Source: Trueperaceae bacterium (GTDB lineage: Bacteria > Deinococcota > Deinococci > Deinococcales > Trueperaceae). From it: a stretch of 11,382 nt of DNA. The notes under the pieces were generated by a model that worked only from the letters and a program-made list of their open reading frames with translations, made no database searches and was not told the DNA's origin. A program made the translations under genes and the position numbers. Positions 3,483-11,382 of the stretch are shown piece after piece. Location: NCBI GenBank assembly GCA_024636105.1, contig JAGXHO010000112.1, positions 1-11,382 on the forward strand, written 5' to 3'. Position 1 is the first letter of the stretch. Each line of letters starts with the position of its first letter.

Positions 3483-4943
3483 TCACTCCCCCTGCGCCAA
3501 CGAGTACCCCGGTTCGCCGTCGAAGTCGTACAGGTGCTCGGTCTTGATCACCTCGAGGCCGGCAGCGTCGACGGCGGCGAGCAACTCGAGCACCTGGGCG
3601 AAGCGCGCCAGCGCACCTTCCGAGGGGAACAAGCGGCAGCGCCAATGGTCGGTGCAATGCGTCTCGGGGAACCCGTCCGGGTAGACGCGGACGCCGCGGT
3701 TCGTGATCATCTTGAGCGTCCAGCCTGCGGCCGTCGCGGCCGCAGCGAGCCGGTCGCCGATCACGTCCGGGGCACGGTCGCCTTCGGACCAGTCGAGGAA
3801 GACGTCGACGCCGCGCAGCACCTTGGTCACCGGCACCGGCGGGCTCAGGTGCACCTGGAGGTCGGCGGCGCGGTAGTGCACCGGCGTGAGCTGCCGGGGC
3901 ATCTCGCCGAGGCGTTCGATGACGGCGTCGGCGAAGCTCTCGGTGCCCACCCGCTCGCGGCTGGTGCCCGCGCGGTAGACGTCGCCGGTGTGCACGCCGT
4001 CCTCGAGCGTGCGCAGCCAAGCGTTGGCGATGCGCTCCGCGACCTCGGGTTGACCCACGTGGACGAGCATCTGCGTGGCCGCCATCAGCATCCCGGACGG
4101 GTTGGCGATGCCGCGGCCGGCGATGTCGGGCGCCGTGCCGTGGATGGCCTCGAACATCGCGACGCGCTCGCCGACGTTCGCGGAACCGCCGAGTCCCACC
4201 GAGCCGGCGATCTGCGCGGTGACGTCCGAGAGCACGTCGCCGTACAGGTTGAGGGTGACGACCACGTCGAAGTCCTCGGGCGTGTCGGCGAGCTTGGCGG
4301 CGCCGATGTCGACGATCATGTGCTCCGCGGTGATCTCGGGGTACTCGACCGCCACCTCGTCGAACACCTTGTGAAAGGTGCCGTCGGTGAGCTTCATGAT
4401 GTTGTCCTTGGTCATGCACGTGACCTTGGAGCGGCCGTACGCGCGGGCGTACGCGAACGCGTAGCGCACGATGCGTTCGGTGCCGGGGCGGCTGATCAGC
4501 TTGAGCGACTGGAAGACCTCGGCCGTCTGCCGGTGCTCGATGCCAGCGTAGAGATCCTCCTCGTTCTCGCGCACGATCACGACGTCCATGCCCGGATGGC
4601 GGGTGGGGACGTAGGGCGCCAGCGCCCGCGTCTCGCGCACGTTGGCGAAGAGCCCGAGGCTCTTGCGCAGGGTGACGTTGACGCTCTTGTAGCCGCCGCC
4701 CTGGGGGGTGAGCACCGGGCCCTTGAGCATGACGCGGTGCTCACGGATCGCCTGCCACGCGGCTTCGGGAACGCCTGAGGTCTCGCCCTGGAGGTAGGCG
4801 GCGTTGCCGACCGTGATCGGGACCCAGGCGATCGCCGCACCGGCGGCGTCGACGATGCGGCGGGTCGCCGCGGTGATCTCGGGGCCGATGCCGTCGCCCT
4901 CGGCGACGGCGACGGCTACGGGGACATGCGGATCGGTGGCCAT
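3483..4943 (-). CDS. icd: isocitrate dehydrogenase, Thermus type with C-terminal extension, probably NAD-dependent
   Basis: This enzyme oxidatively decarboxylates isocitrate to 2-oxoglutarate in the cytoplasmic TCA cycle. It has 486 residues, close to the 496 of T. thermophilus IDH and longer than E. coli Icd, because of a C-terminal domain (about 365-486) ending in YDFDGEPGYSLAQGE, nearly the Thermus ending. Substrate and metal residues are visible: S87, N89, R93, R103, R125, Y132, K179, D212, D236, D240. The cofactor pocket reads HGTAPDIAGRGIANP: D273, I274 and A280 stand where NADP enzymes have K, Y and V. This predicts NAD preference, unlike the Thermus enzyme. The start is ATG 4943. There is no Shine-Dalgarno, but TACCCT lies 7 nt upstream, so the mRNA may be leaderless. 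The S-N-R substrate loop and the C-terminal domain argue against isopropylmalate or homoisocitrate dehydrogenase. Confidence 0.93.
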   Translation of the reverse strand: MATDPHVPVAVAVAEGDGIGPEITAATRRIVDAAGAAIAWVPITVGNAAYLQGETSGVPEAAWQAIREHRVMLKGPVLTPQGGGYKSVNVTLRKSLGLFANVRETRALAPYVPTRHPGMDVVIVRENEEDLYAGIEHRQTAEVFQSLKLISRPGTERIVRYAFAYARAYGRSKVTCMTKDNIMKLTDGTFHKVFDEVAVEYPEITAEHMIVDIGAAKLADTPEDFDVVVTLNLYGDVLSDVTAQIAGSVGLGGSANVGERVAMFEAIHGTAPDIAGRGIANPSGMLMAATQMLVHVGQPEVAERIANAWLRTLEDGVHTGDVYRAGTSRERVGTESFADAVIERLGEMPRQLTPVHYRAADLQVHLSPPVPVTKVLRGVDVFLDWSEGDRAPDVIGDRLAAAATAAGWTLKMITNRGVRVYPDGFPETHCTDHWRCRLFPSEGALARFAQVLELLAAVDAAGLEVIKTEHLYDFDGEPGYSLAQGE

Positions 4944-4950
4944 GGGGCTC

Positions 4951-5023: not shown

Positions 5024-7531
5024 TCAGACGGCGCCGAACTCGACCCGAAGGCGCCGCTGCCGCGCCTTCGCGAGCGCCAACCGCGGATCGCCGGCGGGCA
5101 GTGCGTCGGCCGCGGCCTCCCACAGCTCGAGGTCGTCGCCGAGGCGCTCGGCGAGGTCGAACAACACGTCGGCGTCGGCCGCCGTGAGCGCAGCCTCGCG
5201 CAAGTGCTCTTCGAGCCCGTCGCGCGCCTCGCGCACGCCGAACGCGTCGCTCTCCGGCAACAGCGCCCCGCGCACGAGCGCCACCGCCTCGCGCACCCGA
5301 CCCGCCGCCAGCTGGCGGCGCGCCTCGAGCACGTCGGCCACGTACGGCTCGGTGAACCGGTACGGGGCGTCGCTCACGGGCAGCAGCGTGCGCAAGCGGG
5401 TCGTGAGCCCGCGCAGGCCGCCGCTCGTGAACGGCGCCTGGCCGCCCCGCGTCAGGAAGTCGTTGAGCGCGTCGCGGTCGATGCCGTCGGGATGCAGCGC
5501 GAGCGCGAGGGCGACCTCGCGCAGCCGCGGCGGCAGGGCGACCGGGCGTCCGTGCCACCGCGCGCGGACGGTCCCGAAGAACTCGAGGTGGAGCGCCGAG
5601 CCACCCCCGCTCATCGCGGCGATCACGCCGTCGAACACGTCGGGTGGACCGGCGAACACGCGCAGGGCACTCGGAGCGAGCCCACGGAGCACCGGGCGGA
5701 GCTCCTCGGGGAGGCTCGCGGCCAGCTCGGGCCGCACGAGCAGCAGGTGCAGCGCGGCCGGCAGCCGGTGTTCGGCCTCGAGCGTTCGCTCGAACAGCGC
5801 CTCCGACAGGTCGTCCGCGGCAGCTCGACCCGCGGGCCCCTCGCTCGCACCGGCGCGCCAGGCGACGACGGCGCGCGCCATGCCGCGCGTCAGGGCGGCG
5901 AGCGCGCGAGCGTACGGATCGCCCCACGGGGCGAGCTCGAAGGTCGCGTCCGCGACCTCGCACGCTTCGCGCTCCCGCCCCAGCTCCAGCAGCGTGCGGA
6001 CGAGGACGACGGCGTGGTGGCTGCGGGTCCGAAGCGACGCTGCATCGAAGGCGGGTCGGATCCGCGCTTCGGCCGCCTCGGGCCGCCCGACGGCGAGCTC
6101 GAAGGCCGCCCACGTCGACCGGAAGTGTCCGGCAAGGTCCGGGAGCGCGCCGTCGAGGACGGCGGCCCCGTCGGCGAAGGTGCGCTCGAGGCCCGCCAGG
6201 TCGCCGGTGAGCACGCGCGCGTACGCCAGGTCGTTGACCAACTGCAGCCGCCGCGGCCCGTCGTTGATGCCGTGCCGATCGAGCGCCTGCAGCGCCCAGT
6301 GGGCCCAGGCGCGGGCGCGCACGAAGGCGCCGAGGTGCAACAGCCGGGCGGCGAGCGCCCCGGCGTTGCGCGCGACGTCGTACGGCGTGCCGACGTCTTC
6401 GGCGAGGCGGACCGACTCCTCGAGGAGCTCCGCGCCGCGGGCCAGGTCCGGGTGGAGGCGGCCGAGCTGCCACACCGTCAGCGGCGTCCGGCGCGCCTCG
6501 ACCGCCGCCGTGGCCAGGGCGAATCCCTCGGCAGACGCCATCGCACCGGCTCGGCGGGCGCGCAGTTCGGGCGCGGCGAAGGCGGCGAGGTGAGCGTCGA
6601 CCTCGTCGACCACGTCTGCCAAGCGCCCCGTGCCGGCGGCGGCGACGAGGCGCCACTCGAGCACCCGCTCGCGGGTGTGGTACGGCGGCCCGAGCGCGGT
6701 GAGGAGTAGGTGCAGGCGGTCGAGCAGGCCCCGTTCCTGGTACGCCGGACCGGACCGACGCAACAGCTCGTCGGCGAGCTCGGGCGCCCGCAGGACCGCG
6801 AGCTCGAGCGCGCCGACGTGGTCGCCGTCGCGGGCGAGCGCTCGGGCGGCGAGGCTCGCGTCGACGGCGCGCGCGTCGTCGACGGCCACCAGCGGCCCGC
6901 CGGGTCCCGGCACCTTGGGGAGCGGGAGGTGGACGGCGCGCGCCGCCTCCAGAAGCAGGTCGCCGAACCGACCGCCCGTGGCCAACAGGAGCTCGGAGAC
7001 CGCGGCGCGATCGAGCGCACGCGGCACGATCGCGTCCACTTCCGCCGGGCGCACGGCCAGTTCGGACGGGCCGCGGATGGTCGCCCACGTGCGCAGCGCG
7101 TCGCCGACGTCGGTCGTGCGCACGTCGAGGAGGACGCGCAAGCCCTCGTCGTGCAGCGCCCCCAGGTCGGCCAACCAAGCAGGGGGCGGCGCCGTAAGGG
7201 TCGCGACCACCCAGAGCGGGGCGAGGTCGGCCCGGTGGTGGCGCACCGCGTCGAGTTGGGCCTGCACCGGCAGGCCGAACCCGAACAGCGGCCCGCCGGC
7301 CACCGAGTTCAGGGCCGCGGCCAGGGCGTTCGCCTGGGCGACGGGATCGCCGTCCTGGCGTGGGCCCAAGGCGAACCAGGCGAGCCGCCGACGCTCGCGC
7401 AGGGCGTCGATCACGAACGGCGTGCCGCAGGGCTCACCGCCGTGCAGCACGACCGGTCGTCGGCTTCGCTCCAGAGCCTCGAGCTGGCGGGGAAGCCACA
7501 CGCCGGCACGATAGCGGGTCGTGCGCACCAC
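5024..7531 (-). CDS. large SARP/BTAD-type transcriptional regulator with degenerate STAND NTPase region
   Basis: This 835-residue protein is probably a transcription factor. The N-terminus resembles MalT/LuxR-type STAND proteins: VVLHGG-EPCGTP (about 27-38) sits where the P-loop belongs, followed by RLAWFALGPRQDGDP (49-63). The Walker A lysine is absent and no acidic Walker B is seen, so ATP use is doubtful. Residues about 220-630 are Ala/Leu/Arg-rich helices resembling TPR-like repeats. Residues about 646-730 fit an OmpR-type winged helix as in SARPs (LHLEFFGTVRARWHGRPVAL, then LRGLTTRLRTLL). Residues 731-830 are helical, like a BTAD. Unusually, the DNA-binding region is C-terminal. The start is GTG 7531; GTG 7528 is equally possible. 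It lies 12 nt after the small upstream gene with no strong Shine-Dalgarno, suggesting coupled translation. Ligand and targets are unknown; the palindrome at 7770-7827 is the obvious candidate operator. Confidence 0.8.
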   Translation of the reverse strand: MVRTTRYRAGVWLPRQLEALERSRRPVVLHGGEPCGTPFVIDALRERRRLAWFALGPRQDGDPVAQANALAAALNSVAGGPLFGFGLPVQAQLDAVRHHRADLAPLWVVATLTAPPPAWLADLGALHDEGLRVLLDVRTTDVGDALRTWATIRGPSELAVRPAEVDAIVPRALDRAAVSELLLATGGRFGDLLLEAARAVHLPLPKVPGPGGPLVAVDDARAVDASLAARALARDGDHVGALELAVLRAPELADELLRRSGPAYQERGLLDRLHLLLTALGPPYHTRERVLEWRLVAAAGTGRLADVVDEVDAHLAAFAAPELRARRAGAMASAEGFALATAAVEARRTPLTVWQLGRLHPDLARGAELLEESVRLAEDVGTPYDVARNAGALAARLLHLGAFVRARAWAHWALQALDRHGINDGPRRLQLVNDLAYARVLTGDLAGLERTFADGAAVLDGALPDLAGHFRSTWAAFELAVGRPEAAEARIRPAFDAASLRTRSHHAVVLVRTLLELGREREACEVADATFELAPWGDPYARALAALTRGMARAVVAWRAGASEGPAGRAAADDLSEALFERTLEAEHRLPAALHLLLVRPELAASLPEELRPVLRGLAPSALRVFAGPPDVFDGVIAAMSGGGSALHLEFFGTVRARWHGRPVALPPRLREVALALALHPDGIDRDALNDFLTRGGQAPFTSGGLRGLTTRLRTLLPVSDAPYRFTEPYVADVLEARRQLAAGRVREAVALVRGALLPESDAFGVREARDGLEEHLREAALTAADADVLFDLAERLGDDLELWEAAADALPAGDPRLALAKARQRRLRVEFGAV

Positions 7532-7543
7532 CGGAGTGGCGCT

Positions 7544-7729
7544 CTAGGCAGCGTGCTCCATCGATGCGTTCGCGAGCGGCGACGCCCGCCACGCGTCTCC
7601 GGAACGATCCTCGACGCTGAGCGCCTCGATCGACCGCAGCCAGCGCGGATCGCGAACGAGCACCCGATCGCCTTGGAACCGGAACTCCGTCGTCCGCTCG
7701 AGGCGACGGCGCGCTTCTTCATGGGTCAT
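7544..7729 (-). CDS. small orphan protein, 61 aa, first gene of the regulator operon
   Basis: I do not recognise this protein. It is a soluble, charged 61-residue product with no signal or membrane segment. It has a basic, helix-prone start (MTHEEARRRLERTTEF), a middle rich in R, D and W (about 20-31), and an alanine-rich end. The case for a real gene is the start: ATG 7729 follows GAGGAGG at 7-nt spacing, with a TANNNT box 27 nt upstream, and the stop is 12 nt before the large regulator's GTG. It is therefore probably co-transcribed and coupled with the regulator. A role as modulator or partner of the regulator would be inference. It could also be a translated leader that sets regulator expression. 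Confidence 0.65.
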   Translation of the reverse strand: MTHEEARRRLERTTEFRFQGDRVLVRDPRWLRSIEALSVEDRSGDAWRASPLANASMEHAA

Positions 7730-7756
7730 GGTGGGACCTCCTCGAACTGTGCAGCC

Positions 7757-7762
7757 AGCCTA
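7757..7762 (-). promoter_or_regulatory. putative -10 box (TAGGCT) of the regulator operon
   Basis: TAGGCT on the minus strand lies 7 nt beyond the outer edge of the left palindrome arm and 27 nt before ATG 7729. TTTGGA inside the arm is 13 nt upstream, too close for a normal -35. An activator bound at the arm may therefore replace -35 contacts. Confidence 0.45.
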
Positions 7763-7769
7763 CGGACGT

Positions 7770-7827
7770 GGGCGCTCCAAAGCCGCGCCATCGTTTCACG
7801 CGTGCATGAAGCGGCTTTGGAGCGCCC
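7770..7827. promoter_or_regulatory. perfect 17-bp inverted repeat, likely operator of a divergent promoter pair
   Basis: GGGCGCTCCAAAGCCGC (7770-7786) and its exact reverse complement (7811-7827) are separated by 24 bp, giving a centre-to-centre distance of 41 bp, close to four helical turns. It sits in the middle of the 134-bp gap between two divergent small genes. Each arm is followed outward by 7 bp and a TANNNT box (7762-7757 on minus, 7835-7840 on plus). No T-tract follows either arm, and both neighbours point away, so a terminator is unlikely. A shared binding site for the SARP-like regulator is the best reading, but which protein binds is inference. Confidence 0.7.
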
Positions 7828-7834
7828 CCCTGCG

Positions 7835-7840
7835 TACCCT
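7835..7840 (+). promoter_or_regulatory. putative -10 box (TACCCT) of the peptide gene
   Basis: TACCCT lies 7 nt beyond the right palindrome arm and 23 nt before ATG 7864. It mirrors the TAGGCT box on the other side with identical spacing. The 8-mer CGTACCCT here also occurs in front of the IDH gene. Confidence 0.5.
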
Positions 7841-7863
7841 CCGATCAACTCAAGGAGGGTCCC

Positions 7864-8004
7864 ATGACCACCTTCAAGACCATCGTTCGTACCGCGCTCG
7901 TCGTCCTCGCCCTCGGTGGCCTCACCTCCGGCACCTTCGCGGCGCTGCAGCCCACCAGCACGACCTTCGCCGGCAGCACCAAGGGCATCATCGACGTCGG
8001 CTGA
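7864..8004 (+). CDS. 46-aa secreted peptide precursor, candidate signal peptide pheromone
   Basis: This tiny gene has a near-ideal start: AGGAGG (7853-7858) 5 nt before ATG 7864. Its 46-residue product has a standard Sec signal: basic N-region with K5 and R9, hydrophobic core about 11-20 (ALVVLALGGL), and a small-residue site T24-F25-A26. Cleavage there would release a 20-residue peptide starting ALQPTSTTF and ending STKGIIDVG. It has no cysteines, no lipobox and no double-glycine leader, which argues against a lipoprotein or a typical bacteriocin. It diverges from the regulator operon across the shared palindrome. I know no homolog. A secreted signal sensed by the cell, or a small envelope peptide, are the main options. 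Confidence 0.7.
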   Translation: MTTFKTIVRTALVVLALGGLTSGTFAALQPTSTTFAGSTKGIIDVG

Positions 8005-8063
8005 CGCCGACTCGACGGACCACGCCCCCCGGCGCACCGCGTCGTAGAGAGAGACGAGGATCC

Positions 8064-8087
8064 GGCGCCTGCGATCGTGCGGGCGCC
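8064..8087 (+). repeat. small GC hairpin upstream of the EAL gene
   Basis: GGCGCC at 8064-8069 and 8082-8087 can pair across a 12-nt loop. It lies in the 92-bp gap between the peptide stop and the EAL start and ends 9 nt before the EAL ATG, where a Shine-Dalgarno would be expected. No T-tract follows. It could affect EAL translation, or be chance in GC-rich DNA. Confidence 0.25.
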
Positions 8088-8096
8088 ATTCACCTG

Positions 8097-8915
8097 ATGC
8101 CCGACCTGCAGCAACCCCACGAGCCGCCGCCGCTCGACGCCCTGCGCTTCCTGTACCAACCGGTCGAGGCCCTCTCGACGCGCGACGACGGTTGGCACGA
8201 AGCGCTGGTGCGGTGGTACCTCGAGGACGGGACCGTGCGCGGACCCGACACGGTGCTGCCCTACTGGCTCGAGCCCACGCGTCAGTCGACGTTCACGCGC
8301 TTCACGGTGCAGCACGCCGCCGAGGCGCTGCACGCGTACCCGGACGCGCGCCTGAGCGTCAACCTCAGCCCGCGCCAGGCGACCCATCCGACCGCGCTGT
8401 GCGCGCTCGAGGACGTCCTCCCCGATCTGCGCGGCCGCTTGATCGTCGAACTGACCGAGCAGCGCTACCTCGACATCGGCAGCCTCTGGGCCAGCCTCGC
8501 CGCCCTGGGCGAACGCCTCGACCTGGTCCTACTCGACGACGTCTCCGCAACCGACCTCGAGCGCCGCTGGCAGCTCGACGCCCCGGTCGACGGCATCAAG
8601 CTCGACCGCAGCGTGCTCGCCCTGTTGCGCGATCGCGACACCCGCCCCGGCGTCGCCAAGCTCGTGCGCGAGGCCTCGTTGCGGTACCGCATCGTGGTGG
8701 TCGAGGGCGTGGAAGCCGAGCACGAACTCGACCTGCTCGAGGGCATCGGCGCCACCCACGCGCAAGGGTTCGCCATCGGTCGCCCCGGGCGCGCGCTGGC
8801 GCCCGACGACCTGCGGCGGCGTAGCCACCGGGGAGCGTACGAACGGTCGGAGCGACCCGACGGCCTCGGCCGCCTCGACGCACGTCTCGATGCGCGCCAC
8901 GATCGTGATCGCTGA
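8097..8915 (+). CDS. stand-alone EAL-domain protein (cyclic-di-GMP phosphodiesterase or binder)
   Basis: This 272-residue protein is one EAL domain with no GGDEF, sensor or membrane part. EAL enzymes hydrolyse cyclic-di-GMP to pGpG. The key residues can be matched: E35 in EALVRW, N89 in SVNLSPRQ, E118 in VELTE, D147-D148, K168 in GIKLDRS, E203 in VEGVE and Q223 in AQGF. Loop 6 is unusual: DDVSATDL replaces the usual DDFGTGYSS, and this loop supports metal binding and dimerisation. It may therefore be weak, or act as a sensor. The last 30 residues are a charged Arg/Asp-rich tail. ATG 8097 is the first sensible start in frame, with no good Shine-Dalgarno. It lies 92 nt after the peptide gene on the same strand and has no clear promoter of its own, so co-transcription is plausible. 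Confidence 0.85.
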   Translation: MPDLQQPHEPPPLDALRFLYQPVEALSTRDDGWHEALVRWYLEDGTVRGPDTVLPYWLEPTRQSTFTRFTVQHAAEALHAYPDARLSVNLSPRQATHPTALCALEDVLPDLRGRLIVELTEQRYLDIGSLWASLAALGERLDLVLLDDVSATDLERRWQLDAPVDGIKLDRSVLALLRDRDTRPGVAKLVREASLRYRIVVVEGVEAEHELDLLEGIGATHAQGFAIGRPGRALAPDDLRRRSHRGAYERSERPDGLGRLDARLDARHDRDR

Positions 8916-10364: not shown

Positions 10365-11382
10365 TTACGGCCGCCGCACCTCGAACGCCAGATGCATGGC
10401 CGGCAGCTCCTCGCCCGGATGGTCCGCGGCGTGGAGCATCGGCACCTGCAGGTACGTGGCGTTCGCGTCCGGCGTGGCCGGAGCACCCGGACCCGTGACC
10501 TCGCCCTGGTAGATCGACGGGTAGAACGACAGGAAGTGCACGCCCTCTTGGCCCGGCGCCTTCAGGTGGATCGTCACGTCGCCCTGGCTGTTGAAGCCGC
10601 AGCCGTAACCCAGGTAGCCGTTGTTGAGCAGCACCGTGTAGATGTTGGCGGTCTCGGTCCAACCGACGCCCTTGAGCACGATCGTGACGTCGCCGCCCGG
10701 CTCCACCACGGCCGGCGTCGCGAGCATCACCGACGGGGTGATCGTGTAGACGAACGTCGCCTCGGCGCCCTCGGCGCGCGCGTGGAAGACGTGTTCGCCG
10801 CCCAGGTCGTCGGGGGTCGGCAGCGTGGTGGCGAAGGCGCCGTCCATGTCGGTCTCGACGGTGCCGAGCTCGTTCTCGACGACCTCCCACCCGCCGCCGC
10901 TGATGCGGTTGCCGCGGACGCTGTCGAACGAGAGGCGCACGGCGGTGTTCGCCGGGAAGCCGGAACCGCTCAGCGCGATCGGGCTGCCGACCGGACCGGA
11001 GCGGTAGTCGGCCCACAGGTGGGGATCGGCGCCCATCGTCGGGGCGGCCGGACGGCGCGGTAGCGTCTGCGTCTCGGGTGGCGGCGGCAGGACCGCGTCG
11101 CCCTCCGTGATCTCGAACAGCGCGCTCACGACGGTAGGAACCGCCGGCTTGTAGTTGGGCGACTGCTGTTGGTTGAGGTACGGCACCGGGTGGGTGCCCG
11201 AGAGCAACTGCAGGGTGTGAAGCCCGACCGCGCCGGTCGCCGGGATCGTGGCGACGGCCGTGCCCTGGCTGGTGATCGCCGTGAGCATGCCGGCGTGCGC
11301 GCCGTCGTAGAGCAGGTGCCAGGCGATCTCCCAGAAGCGGTAGCCGACGCCGGTCATCGTCACGGTGATCGGCGTGCCGACC
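10365..11382 (-). CDS. secreted-looking beta-sandwich (IPT/Ig-like) repeat protein, N-terminus outside window
   Basis: The reading frame stays open to the window edge, so the start is missing; 338 residues up to TAA (10367-10365) are visible. The text is rich in G, T, V, P and N, with beta-strand patterns. The opening VGTPITVTMTGVGYRFW is typical of IPT/TIG-like Ig folds, and a second unit begins near GPVGSPIALSGSGFPANT. A third, near VEPGGDVTIVLKGVGW, repeats the pattern of a Gly/Pro turn, a beta strand, then GxGF or GxGW. A proline-rich linker (DAVLPPPPETQTLPRRP) separates the first from the rest. No enzyme motif or C-terminal anchor is seen. An extracellular or envelope structural or adhesion role is likely for such proteins, but the specific job is unknown. 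The ending is next to a strong terminator hairpin. Confidence 0.7.
   Translation of the reverse strand, partial: VGTPITVTMTGVGYRFWEIAWHLLYDGAHAGMLTAITSQGTAVATIPATGAVGLHTLQLLSGTHPVPYLNQQQSPNYKPAVPTVVSALFEITEGDAVLPPPPETQTLPRRPAAPTMGADPHLWADYRSGPVGSPIALSGSGFPANTAVRLSFDSVRGNRISGGGWEVVENELGTVETDMDGAFATTLPTPDDLGGEHVFHARAEGAEATFVYTITPSVMLATPAVVEPGGDVTIVLKGVGWTETANIYTVLLNNGYLGYGCGFNSQGDVTIHLKAPGQEGVHFLSFYPSIYQGEVTGPGAPATPDANATYLQVPMLHAADHPGEELPAMHLAFEVRRP

What the first reader, a model, noticed from the sequence alone, without database searches (positions are those of the whole stretch)
7544..8004. Possible peptide-signalling locus: secreted 46-aa precursor facing a large repeat-containing regulator
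A Sec-type pre-peptide (predicted 20-residue product) with an ideal ribosome site is divergent from an operon of a 61-aa protein and an 835-aa regulator with a helical-repeat middle. Helical-repeat regulators paired with short exported peptides are a known logic in Firmicutes (RRNPP systems). Here the regulator would be of SARP/BTAD type in a likely Deinococcota genome, which I do not know as a described system. The arrangement is seen; the sensing role is inferred.
Basis: inference. Interest (0 to 1): 0.75.

Follow-up and report, generated by a model that had tools for sequence, protein, structure and literature searches.

The report
Peptide signal module in Deinococcota bacteria
A bacterium of the Deinococcus phylum carries a compact four-gene module in which a tiny exported peptide lies back to back with a large regulator that probably senses it, suggesting a peptide-based cell signal built from different parts than the known ones.

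Summary
The 46-aa ORF belongs to a family of secreted precursors: 90 cluster representatives, the window's own included, all ending in D-x-G. In 20 of the 78 from the first search the tail is repeated; one is QTSNQPGEYDVG three times head to tail. That is how processed peptide pheromones look. In the family of G002 (a Trueperaceae MAG) the precursor lies beside the regulator in 15 of 17 genomes with a regulator at least 50% identical (in the other two the contig starts inside the gene), plus one more distant genome; 111 genomes of the phylum gave no other full-length match. The regulator models as MalT-like NTPase fold, MalT/Rap-like TPR superhelix and C-terminal SARP domain. Between the divergent genes lie two outward promoters with SARP-like geometry, specific to this locus among exact matches. 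A small conserved protein and an EAL (c-di-GMP phosphodiesterase) gene complete the module. Best reading: a self-contained autoinducing peptide circuit that works like RRNPPA with an unrelated receptor. Peptide binding is inferred; tail/TPR covariation was not specific.

The parts
5024..7531 (-). Regulator, 835 aa: degenerate MalT-like NTPase fold (about 12-220), TPR superhelix (about 221-640), C-terminal SARP domain (about 645-831). Proposed cytoplasmic peptide receptor and transcription activator.
7544..7729 (-). p61, small protein in front of the regulator; N-terminal ~35 residues conserved (roughly M-x4-A-x3-(L/V/I)-x2-(S/T)-x2-F ... V-x-(V/L/I)-R). Role unknown.
   Evidence: Picked by eye in 17 loci besides the window from the ORF list, 16 sequences aligned; no Pfam/NCBIfam/PHROG hit.
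7757..7790 (-). SARP-type promoter towards p61/regulator: TGGCGCG (7784-7790), N4, TGGAGCG (7773-7779), N10, TAGGCT (7757-7762).
   Evidence: 0 of 300 shuffles as good; geometry.
7807..7840 (+). SARP-type promoter towards peptide/EAL: TGAAGCG (7807-7813), N4, TGGAGCG (7818-7824), N10, TACCCT (7835-7840). With the minus-strand copy it forms the 31-nt inverted repeat 7761-7791/7806-7836.
   Evidence: in 15 genomes of relatives the exact pattern occurs only at this locus.
7852..7859 (+). Ribosome-binding site AAGGAGGG, 4 nt before the peptide ATG.
   Evidence: Sequence.
7864..8004 (+). Peptide precursor, 46 aa: signal sequence (residues 1-26), spacer ALQPTSTTFA, proposed active tail GSTKGIIDVG (residues 37-46, 7972-8001).
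   Evidence: Family of 90 precursors all ending D-x-G; 16 of 111 genomes of the phylum, each at the regulator locus.
8097..8915 (+). EAL-domain protein, 272 aa, likely c-di-GMP phosphodiesterase; proposed output gene, downstream of the peptide.
   Evidence: PF00563 E 2e-25; matched in 14 of 19 wide loci, i.e. all that have the peptide and sequence beyond it, one of them (L091) as a fragment; motif residues kept in relatives.

Best explanation
The locus is a self-contained autoinducing peptide-signalling module. The 46-aa precursor is exported by Sec, cut by signal peptidase and then trimmed to a C-terminal peptide of about 8-12 residues (here around GSTKGIIDVG). The peptide is taken back up, most likely by one of the many oligopeptide ABC importers, and binds the inner groove of the TPR superhelix of the 835-aa regulator, where the conserved D-x-G-COOH end is the shared handle and the residues before it give specificity. 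[quoted passage not shown] That is a positive loop whose output is loss of c-di-GMP through the EAL enzyme. Shown by computation: precursor family, tail repeats, linkage, promoter geometry, predicted domain folds. Inferred: export and trimming, re-uptake, binding, direction of the effect, c-di-GMP output.
For: Precursor conserved and linked: 16 of 111 genomes, each beside the regulator; 15 of 17 genomes with a regulator >=50% identical, the other two truncated. All 78 + 12 precursors end D-x-G. 20 of 78 carry two or three tail copies, e.g. P0123 with 3 x QTSNQPGEYDVG without linker and P0121 with three tail copies at a 23-aa period, which points to a processed unit of at most 12 residues. In 5 of the 7 precursor pairs with any change, the last 12 codons have a lower rate of amino-acid change than the rest. 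TPR region: best matches are MalT domain III and, next to APPBP2, Rap pheromone complexes; NprR-NprX also listed; Foldseek's first hit is a STAND protein with a TPR sensor, 6mfv. SARP domain plus SARP-type repeats: 11-bp period in 16 of 16 regions, TAnnnT at exactly 10 nt in 16 of 16, none at the other spacings tried. The distant locus L023 keeps the geometry towards the peptide with another heptamer (TTCAACG), the only hit in its genome. Exact element: 22 hits in 15 of 17 genomes, all 22 at this locus, 0 for the reversed pattern. Module kept while neighbours change. PF00496 oligopeptide-binding matches in 4 of 4 genomes.
Against: No binding, expression or secretion data. Tail/TPR covariation given the SARP domain (partial r 0.57) is hardly above that of the signal sequence (0.50), so simple co-inheritance can explain it. 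In 2 of 7 pairs the tail changes faster than the rest (L010/L011 2 of 12 against 1 of 36; L013/L008 7 of 12 against 20 of 36). TPR superhelices are common: APPBP2 scores as high as Rap, many eukaryotic TPR proteins follow. Regulators at 39-42% identity in G025, G032 and G037 have no such peptide in the upstream DNA searched, so the sensor fold does not require it. In a diderm phylum the peptide may stay in the periplasm. The gap from heptamer to -10 is 10 nt against the 8 bp stated for SARPs, unless the repeat is counted as 9 bases. With 2 mismatches allowed, 14 further sites appear in three genomes against 12 in the reversed control (in G022 4 further against 1), so other targets are not excluded.
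Confidence: 0.68

Rival explanations
1. The regulator senses another ligand (sugar, nucleotide, envelope stress, as MalT senses maltotriose), and the secreted peptide is only one of its outputs, for example a surface-active, antimicrobial or biofilm peptide co-expressed with the EAL enzyme.
Against: Tail of about 12 residues in tandem near-identical copies with a fixed C-terminus, by eye not cationic or amphipathic; the exact element is found only at this locus, so the regulator would serve little but its own operon, the peptide and EAL.
Confidence: 0.17
2. The peptide is sensed, but as a cell-autonomous gauge (of Sec export, periplasmic proteolysis or peptide import) rather than as a signal between cells.
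For: Deinococcota have two membranes (recalled), so Sec export delivers to the periplasm; many PF00496 matches for uptake.
Against: Tail residues diversify between close relatives (G/D/R at position 41, V/I/T at 43 in 24 window-type precursors), as expected for signals with distinct types; multi-copy precursors raise dose.
Confidence: 0.1
3. The short ORF is a leader or regulatory uORF for the EAL gene, acting in cis, not as a product.
For: It precedes the EAL gene by 92 nt with a G+C-rich hairpin in between.
Against: Conservation is at protein level with a typical signal sequence and fixed C-terminus across 90 sequences; tandem duplication of the coded tail; the spacer folds no better than shuffles (z -0.46).
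Confidence: 0.04

Closest known systems
RRNPPA systems of Firmicutes (Rap-Phr, NprR-NprX, PlcR-PapR, Rgg-SHP, AimR)
   Same: Short Sec-type precursor next to a TPR regulator, C-terminal active peptide, tandem pheromone copies in some precursors (PMC11343458: abstract and section list seen), positive loop; TPR fold match.
   Different: Receptor is NTPase fold-TPR-SARP, not N-terminal HTH or three-helix bundle plus TPR (architecture from PMC9765709 passages); SARP-type repeats; Deinococcota, not Firmicutes; linked to an EAL enzyme and p61.
Large SARPs such as AfsR (S. coelicolor)
   Same: SARP DNA-binding/BTA domain, NOD and TPR parts; direct repeats 11 bp apart next to a -10 element (PMC10936776, passages seen).
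   Different: Domain order reversed (SARP at the C-terminus); NOD without a P-loop GK[ST]; a peptide gene next door; AfsR is modulated by ATP and phosphorylation, no peptide in the passages seen.
MalT (STAND activator of the maltose regulon)
   Same: Order NTPase fold - TPR sensor - C-terminal DNA-binding domain (order in MalT recalled); both parts match MalT structures.
   Different: C-terminal domain is SARP, not LuxR-type HTH (recalled for MalT); P-loop lost; genetic linkage to a peptide rather than sugar genes.
SARP-LAL regulators (PimR)
   Same: SARP joined to STAND-like parts; heptamers with 4-nt spacers (PMC10972967, passages seen).
   Different: SARP at the N-terminus; antibiotic gene clusters; no peptide partner in the passages seen.

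Membership tests
RRNPPA | Small secreted propeptide encoded next to the receptor | tested here: met
   16 of 111 genomes, each adjacent to the regulator; signal sequence judged by eye and hydrophobicity.
RRNPPA | TPR-type peptide-binding domain | tested here: inconclusive
RRNPPA | N-terminal HTH or three-helix bundle followed by a C-terminal TPR domain | tested here: not met
RRNPPA | Mature peptide is re-imported and binds the receptor | not testable with these tools
   Only the presence of PF00496 matches was seen, 4 of 4 genomes.
SARP regulators | OmpR-type winged helix plus BTAD | tested here: met
SARP regulators | Target promoters with direct repeats 11 (or 22) bp apart | tested here: met
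   16 of 16 regions at 11 bp, 0 at 8-10 or 12-15 (L021 and L023 left out, L023 has another heptamer in the same layout); binding by this regulator is inferred.
SARP regulators | 3' repeat 8 bp from the -10 element | tested here: inconclusive
   10 nt from heptamer to TAnnnT in 16 of 16; 8 if the repeat is taken as 9 bases; the -10 is itself a prediction.
Large SARPs | SARP domain at the N-terminus | tested here: not met
   It is residues ~645-831 of 835.
STAND ATPases (MalT type) | NTPase domain with Walker A GxxxxGK[ST] | tested here: not met
   Fold matches MalT but the loop reads HGGEPCGTPF, consensus LLGGExYGxPF in 38 sequences; motif recalled.
EAL phosphodiesterases | EAL domain with catalytic residues | tested here: met
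   PF00563 2e-25; E of the EAL/ESL/ETL motif in the 15 EAL-type ORFs printed (of 17 loci; L011 none, L009 another frame), N, E, DD, K, E, Q in the 14 sequences; residue roles recalled.

The most novel reading that the evidence does not exclude
A complete peptide-pheromone circuit outside the Firmicutes in a diderm phylum, evolved separately from RRNPPA: a nucleotide-independent STAND-derived receptor with a C-terminal SARP domain senses a D-x-G-ending peptide, autoinduces its own divergent locus through SARP heptamer repeats and, in the same operon, turns down c-di-GMP, so that peptide level is wired directly to the sessile/motile second messenger.
Probability: 0.55. Interest if true: 0.9.

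Novelty: new variant of a known kind. Interest (0 to 1): 0.78.

Why it matters
Cytoplasmic-receptor peptide signalling is treated as a Firmicutes trait: the RRNPPA survey PMC9765709 looked in Firmicutes and found all but one genus within Bacilli (passages seen), and the main text of the RRNPP_detector paper PMC10075063 does not contain 'Deinococc' or 'BTAD' (term search). Here an unrelated receptor class, related to the large SARPs whose TPR input is mostly unknown (recalled), would gain a defined ligand. It makes testable what signal such SARP/STAND regulators read, and links a peptide signal to c-di-GMP in one four-gene unit that could be moved into a laboratory host.

Tried and rejected
Sigma-70 consensus and intrinsic terminator scans of 7500-8150 gave nothing; the inverted repeat is better read as two outward SARP-type promoters than as a terminator. 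Pfam, NCBIfam and PHROGs gave no family for peptide, p61 or regulator; PF27103 is attached to many homologues in the protein table but was not among the families our Pfam copy returned, so its name is not known to me. Profile search of solved structures by sequence found only 5 weak matches, E 0.055 to 6.4. Rfam: 0 matches at gathering threshold in 14 sources. Plasmid search with the 46-aa peptide: none. Covariation: the first Mantel test (27 pairs) included a bad row (L016, translated to 2 residues); repeated without it, 26 pairs; not specific, so not used as support. Fifteen of the pairs were matched only by equal contig length in two tables, which is indirect. A second, 33-aa peptide family beside paralogous regulators lacks the heptamer geometry (0 of 9 regions scanned), so it is not claimed as the same system. 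A single-protein scan of genome contigs, run before an alignment was at hand, gave only 2 loci. Literature: 10 searches; no paper on this system in the listings seen, which were capped (12 of 74, 10 of 107 and 12 of 253 papers seen); papers outside the held library are not excluded. Own slip: the text search for 'EAL' hit residue 24 (VEALS), not the catalytic motif; the motif lines were used instead.

Full report
Observation. Between p61 and the peptide lies a 31-nt inverted repeat, 84% complementary. No family model covers peptide, p61 or regulator; the EAL protein is PF00563, E 2e-25.

Where it occurs. The regulator has 144 homologues at E <= 0.001 among 7988 scored candidates, 120 listed; those listed with an organism name are Trueperaceae or, once, Deinococcales. 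In the 39 whole genomes of the family of G002 (the genome of locus L002, titled Trueperaceae bacterium; NCBI lineage), 31 have a match, 17 at >=50% identity. Upstream of those regulators a divergent short ORF with signal sequence was found by script. A profile of 33 precursors against 111 genomes of the phylum gave 16 genomes with E <= 1e-9, each beside the regulator: 15 of the 17 genomes with a >=50% regulator, plus G013 (38%). The two misses, G008 and G019, have contigs that begin inside the regulator gene. The other hits listed (E 4e-5 to 0.1) cover only part of the profile; one is the second tail copy in G002. Regulators in G025, G032 and G037 (39-42%) have no such peptide in the upstream DNA held (894-1506 bases); G032 still has a p61-like ORF.

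The peptide family. A search of 5.8 billion proteins with the first 15 precursors returned 78 proteins (the window's own included) with E up to 0.0044 and none from there to 10; all 78 end in D-x-G: DVG 61, DAG 9, DPG 8. A second search added 12, all ending D-x-G. The profiles contain that ending, so it is partly selected. Twenty of 78 carry two or three tail copies (of the five counted there as three-copy, P0154 and P0173 are two-copy with a DPG in the linker). P0123 reads ...QTSNQPGEYDVG QTSNQPGEYDVG QTSNQPGEYDVG with no linker; P0121 has three tails GSSGQPGDIDVG at a 23-residue period. Repetition without linker suggests a unit of at most 12 residues. In 24 precursors of the window's own type, residues 36-39 and 44-46 are nearly fixed while 41 (G/D/R), 42 and 43 vary. 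Amino-acid changes in the last 12 codons against the rest: L015/L018 0 of 12 against 3 of 36, L016/L017 1 against 10 of 36, L017/L015 3 against 14 of 36, L016/L015 4 against 14 of 36, L025/L009 0 against 13 of 34; the other way round L010/L011 2 against 1 of 36 and L013/L008 7 against 20 of 36. Two more pairs were identical and two not comparable by length. In L009 (G015) the usual ATG is ACG and the EAL gene gives only a fragment: decay or assembly error.

The promoter. All 18 p61-peptide regions were scanned for two heptamers 11 bp apart and TAnnnT (L018/L019 and L011/L012 are near-duplicates, and for L009 and L021 a fixed 170 bases was taken). Towards the peptide 16 of 18 match TGAAGCG-N4-TGAAGCG-N10-TAnnnT with 0-2 mismatches, none of 300 shuffles each doing as well; misses are L023 and L021. 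Towards p61 the same 16 have a copy with 1-4 mismatches (in L015, L018 and L019 the TA is one base earlier). With other spacings allowed, 16 of 16 have the heptamers at period 11 and none at 8-10 or 12-15, and 16 of 16 have TAnnnT at gap 10 and none at 5-9 or 11-17. The heptamer was read from these regions, so spacing, not its sequence, is the independent point. L023 holds TTCAACG-N4-TTCAACG-N10-TAAGCT towards its peptide: same geometry, other heptamer, one hit in its genome with 2 mismatches allowed; the stretch of its SARP domain around the presumed recognition helix also differs. In 17 genomes the exact pattern occurs 22 times in 15 genomes, all 22 at this locus, reversed pattern 0 (the two empty ones are the truncated G008 and G019). 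With 2 mismatches in three genomes there are 20 hits: 6 at the locus and 14 elsewhere, control 12. This is the layout described for SARP targets (repeats 11 bp apart, 3' repeat 8 bp from -10; PMC10936776, passages; heptamers with 4-15 nt spacers, PMC10972967, passages), except that the gap is 10 counted from the heptamer.

Module and output. Of 19 wide loci, 14 have the EAL gene, i.e. all with the peptide and sequence beyond it (L091 as a fragment); L105 ends too early and L101-L104 lack the peptide. The neighbours are shared at >=70% identity only by L091 (aminotransferase, icd, ABC, MFS), L098 (aminotransferase, icd) and L100 (aminotransferase), the last two being short stretches, so reg-p61|peptide-EAL persists or moves as a unit. 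Motif residues of EAL are kept. PF00496 oligopeptide-binding matches number 15-37 in 4 of 4 genomes, so re-uptake is possible.

Covariation. Over 26 peptide/regulator pairs the tail distance follows the TPR domain (r 0.69), also given the SARP domain (0.57), while the reverse partial is -0.31. But the signal sequence behaves nearly alike (0.50), so this shows co-inheritance, not recognition.

Conclusion. It works like RRNPPA but is not a member: the domain order was tested and not met. It is a SARP-type activator by predicted fold and target layout, with a new kind of partner. Main uncertainty: nobody has shown that the peptide binds. As recalled and unverified, the single-contig genome G037 (3,260,398 bases) has the size of Truepera radiovictrix; no peptide was found there, so a cultured host may not exist and heterologous tests come first.

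Noticed in passing
L126-L135, e.g. L126 1501-1599 (-): A second conserved short peptide, 33 aa, MKNTGKRIF...SQR, in 10 of 111 genomes of the phylum; in at least six it lies about 0.2-2.6 kb upstream, on the same strand, of a paralogous regulator (L107, L108, L109, L111, L113, L132). No SARP-type repeats before it.
   Followed up: partly
L126, L128, L129, L130, L132, L135, within 130 nt before the 33-aa peptide: A recurring short stem-loop-like motif around TTGGGAG or CTGGGAG with complementary flanks before the 33-aa peptide (seen by eye); no Rfam match.
   Followed up: partly
window 7544-7729 (-): p61 is a conserved small protein without any family, between the divergent promoters and the regulator in the peptide-bearing loci; could be a co-regulator or anti-activator.
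   Followed up: partly
L009 / L091 (G015): Peptide start codon reads ACG and only a fragment of the EAL gene matches: decaying module or assembly errors.
   Followed up: no
L016 (G020:C15:19240-21684): Regulator frame contains one internal TAG; left as is.
   Followed up: no
window 3483-4946 (-): Ordinary NADP isocitrate dehydrogenase of the TIGR02924/PRK09222 type, above both cut-offs.
   Followed up: no
window 10365-11381 (-): Protein with weak IPT/TIG and PGS Ig-like matches, below cut-offs, running off the window.
   Followed up: no
window 8064-8087: G+C-rich hairpin between peptide and EAL gene; the whole spacer folds no better than shuffles.
   Followed up: partly
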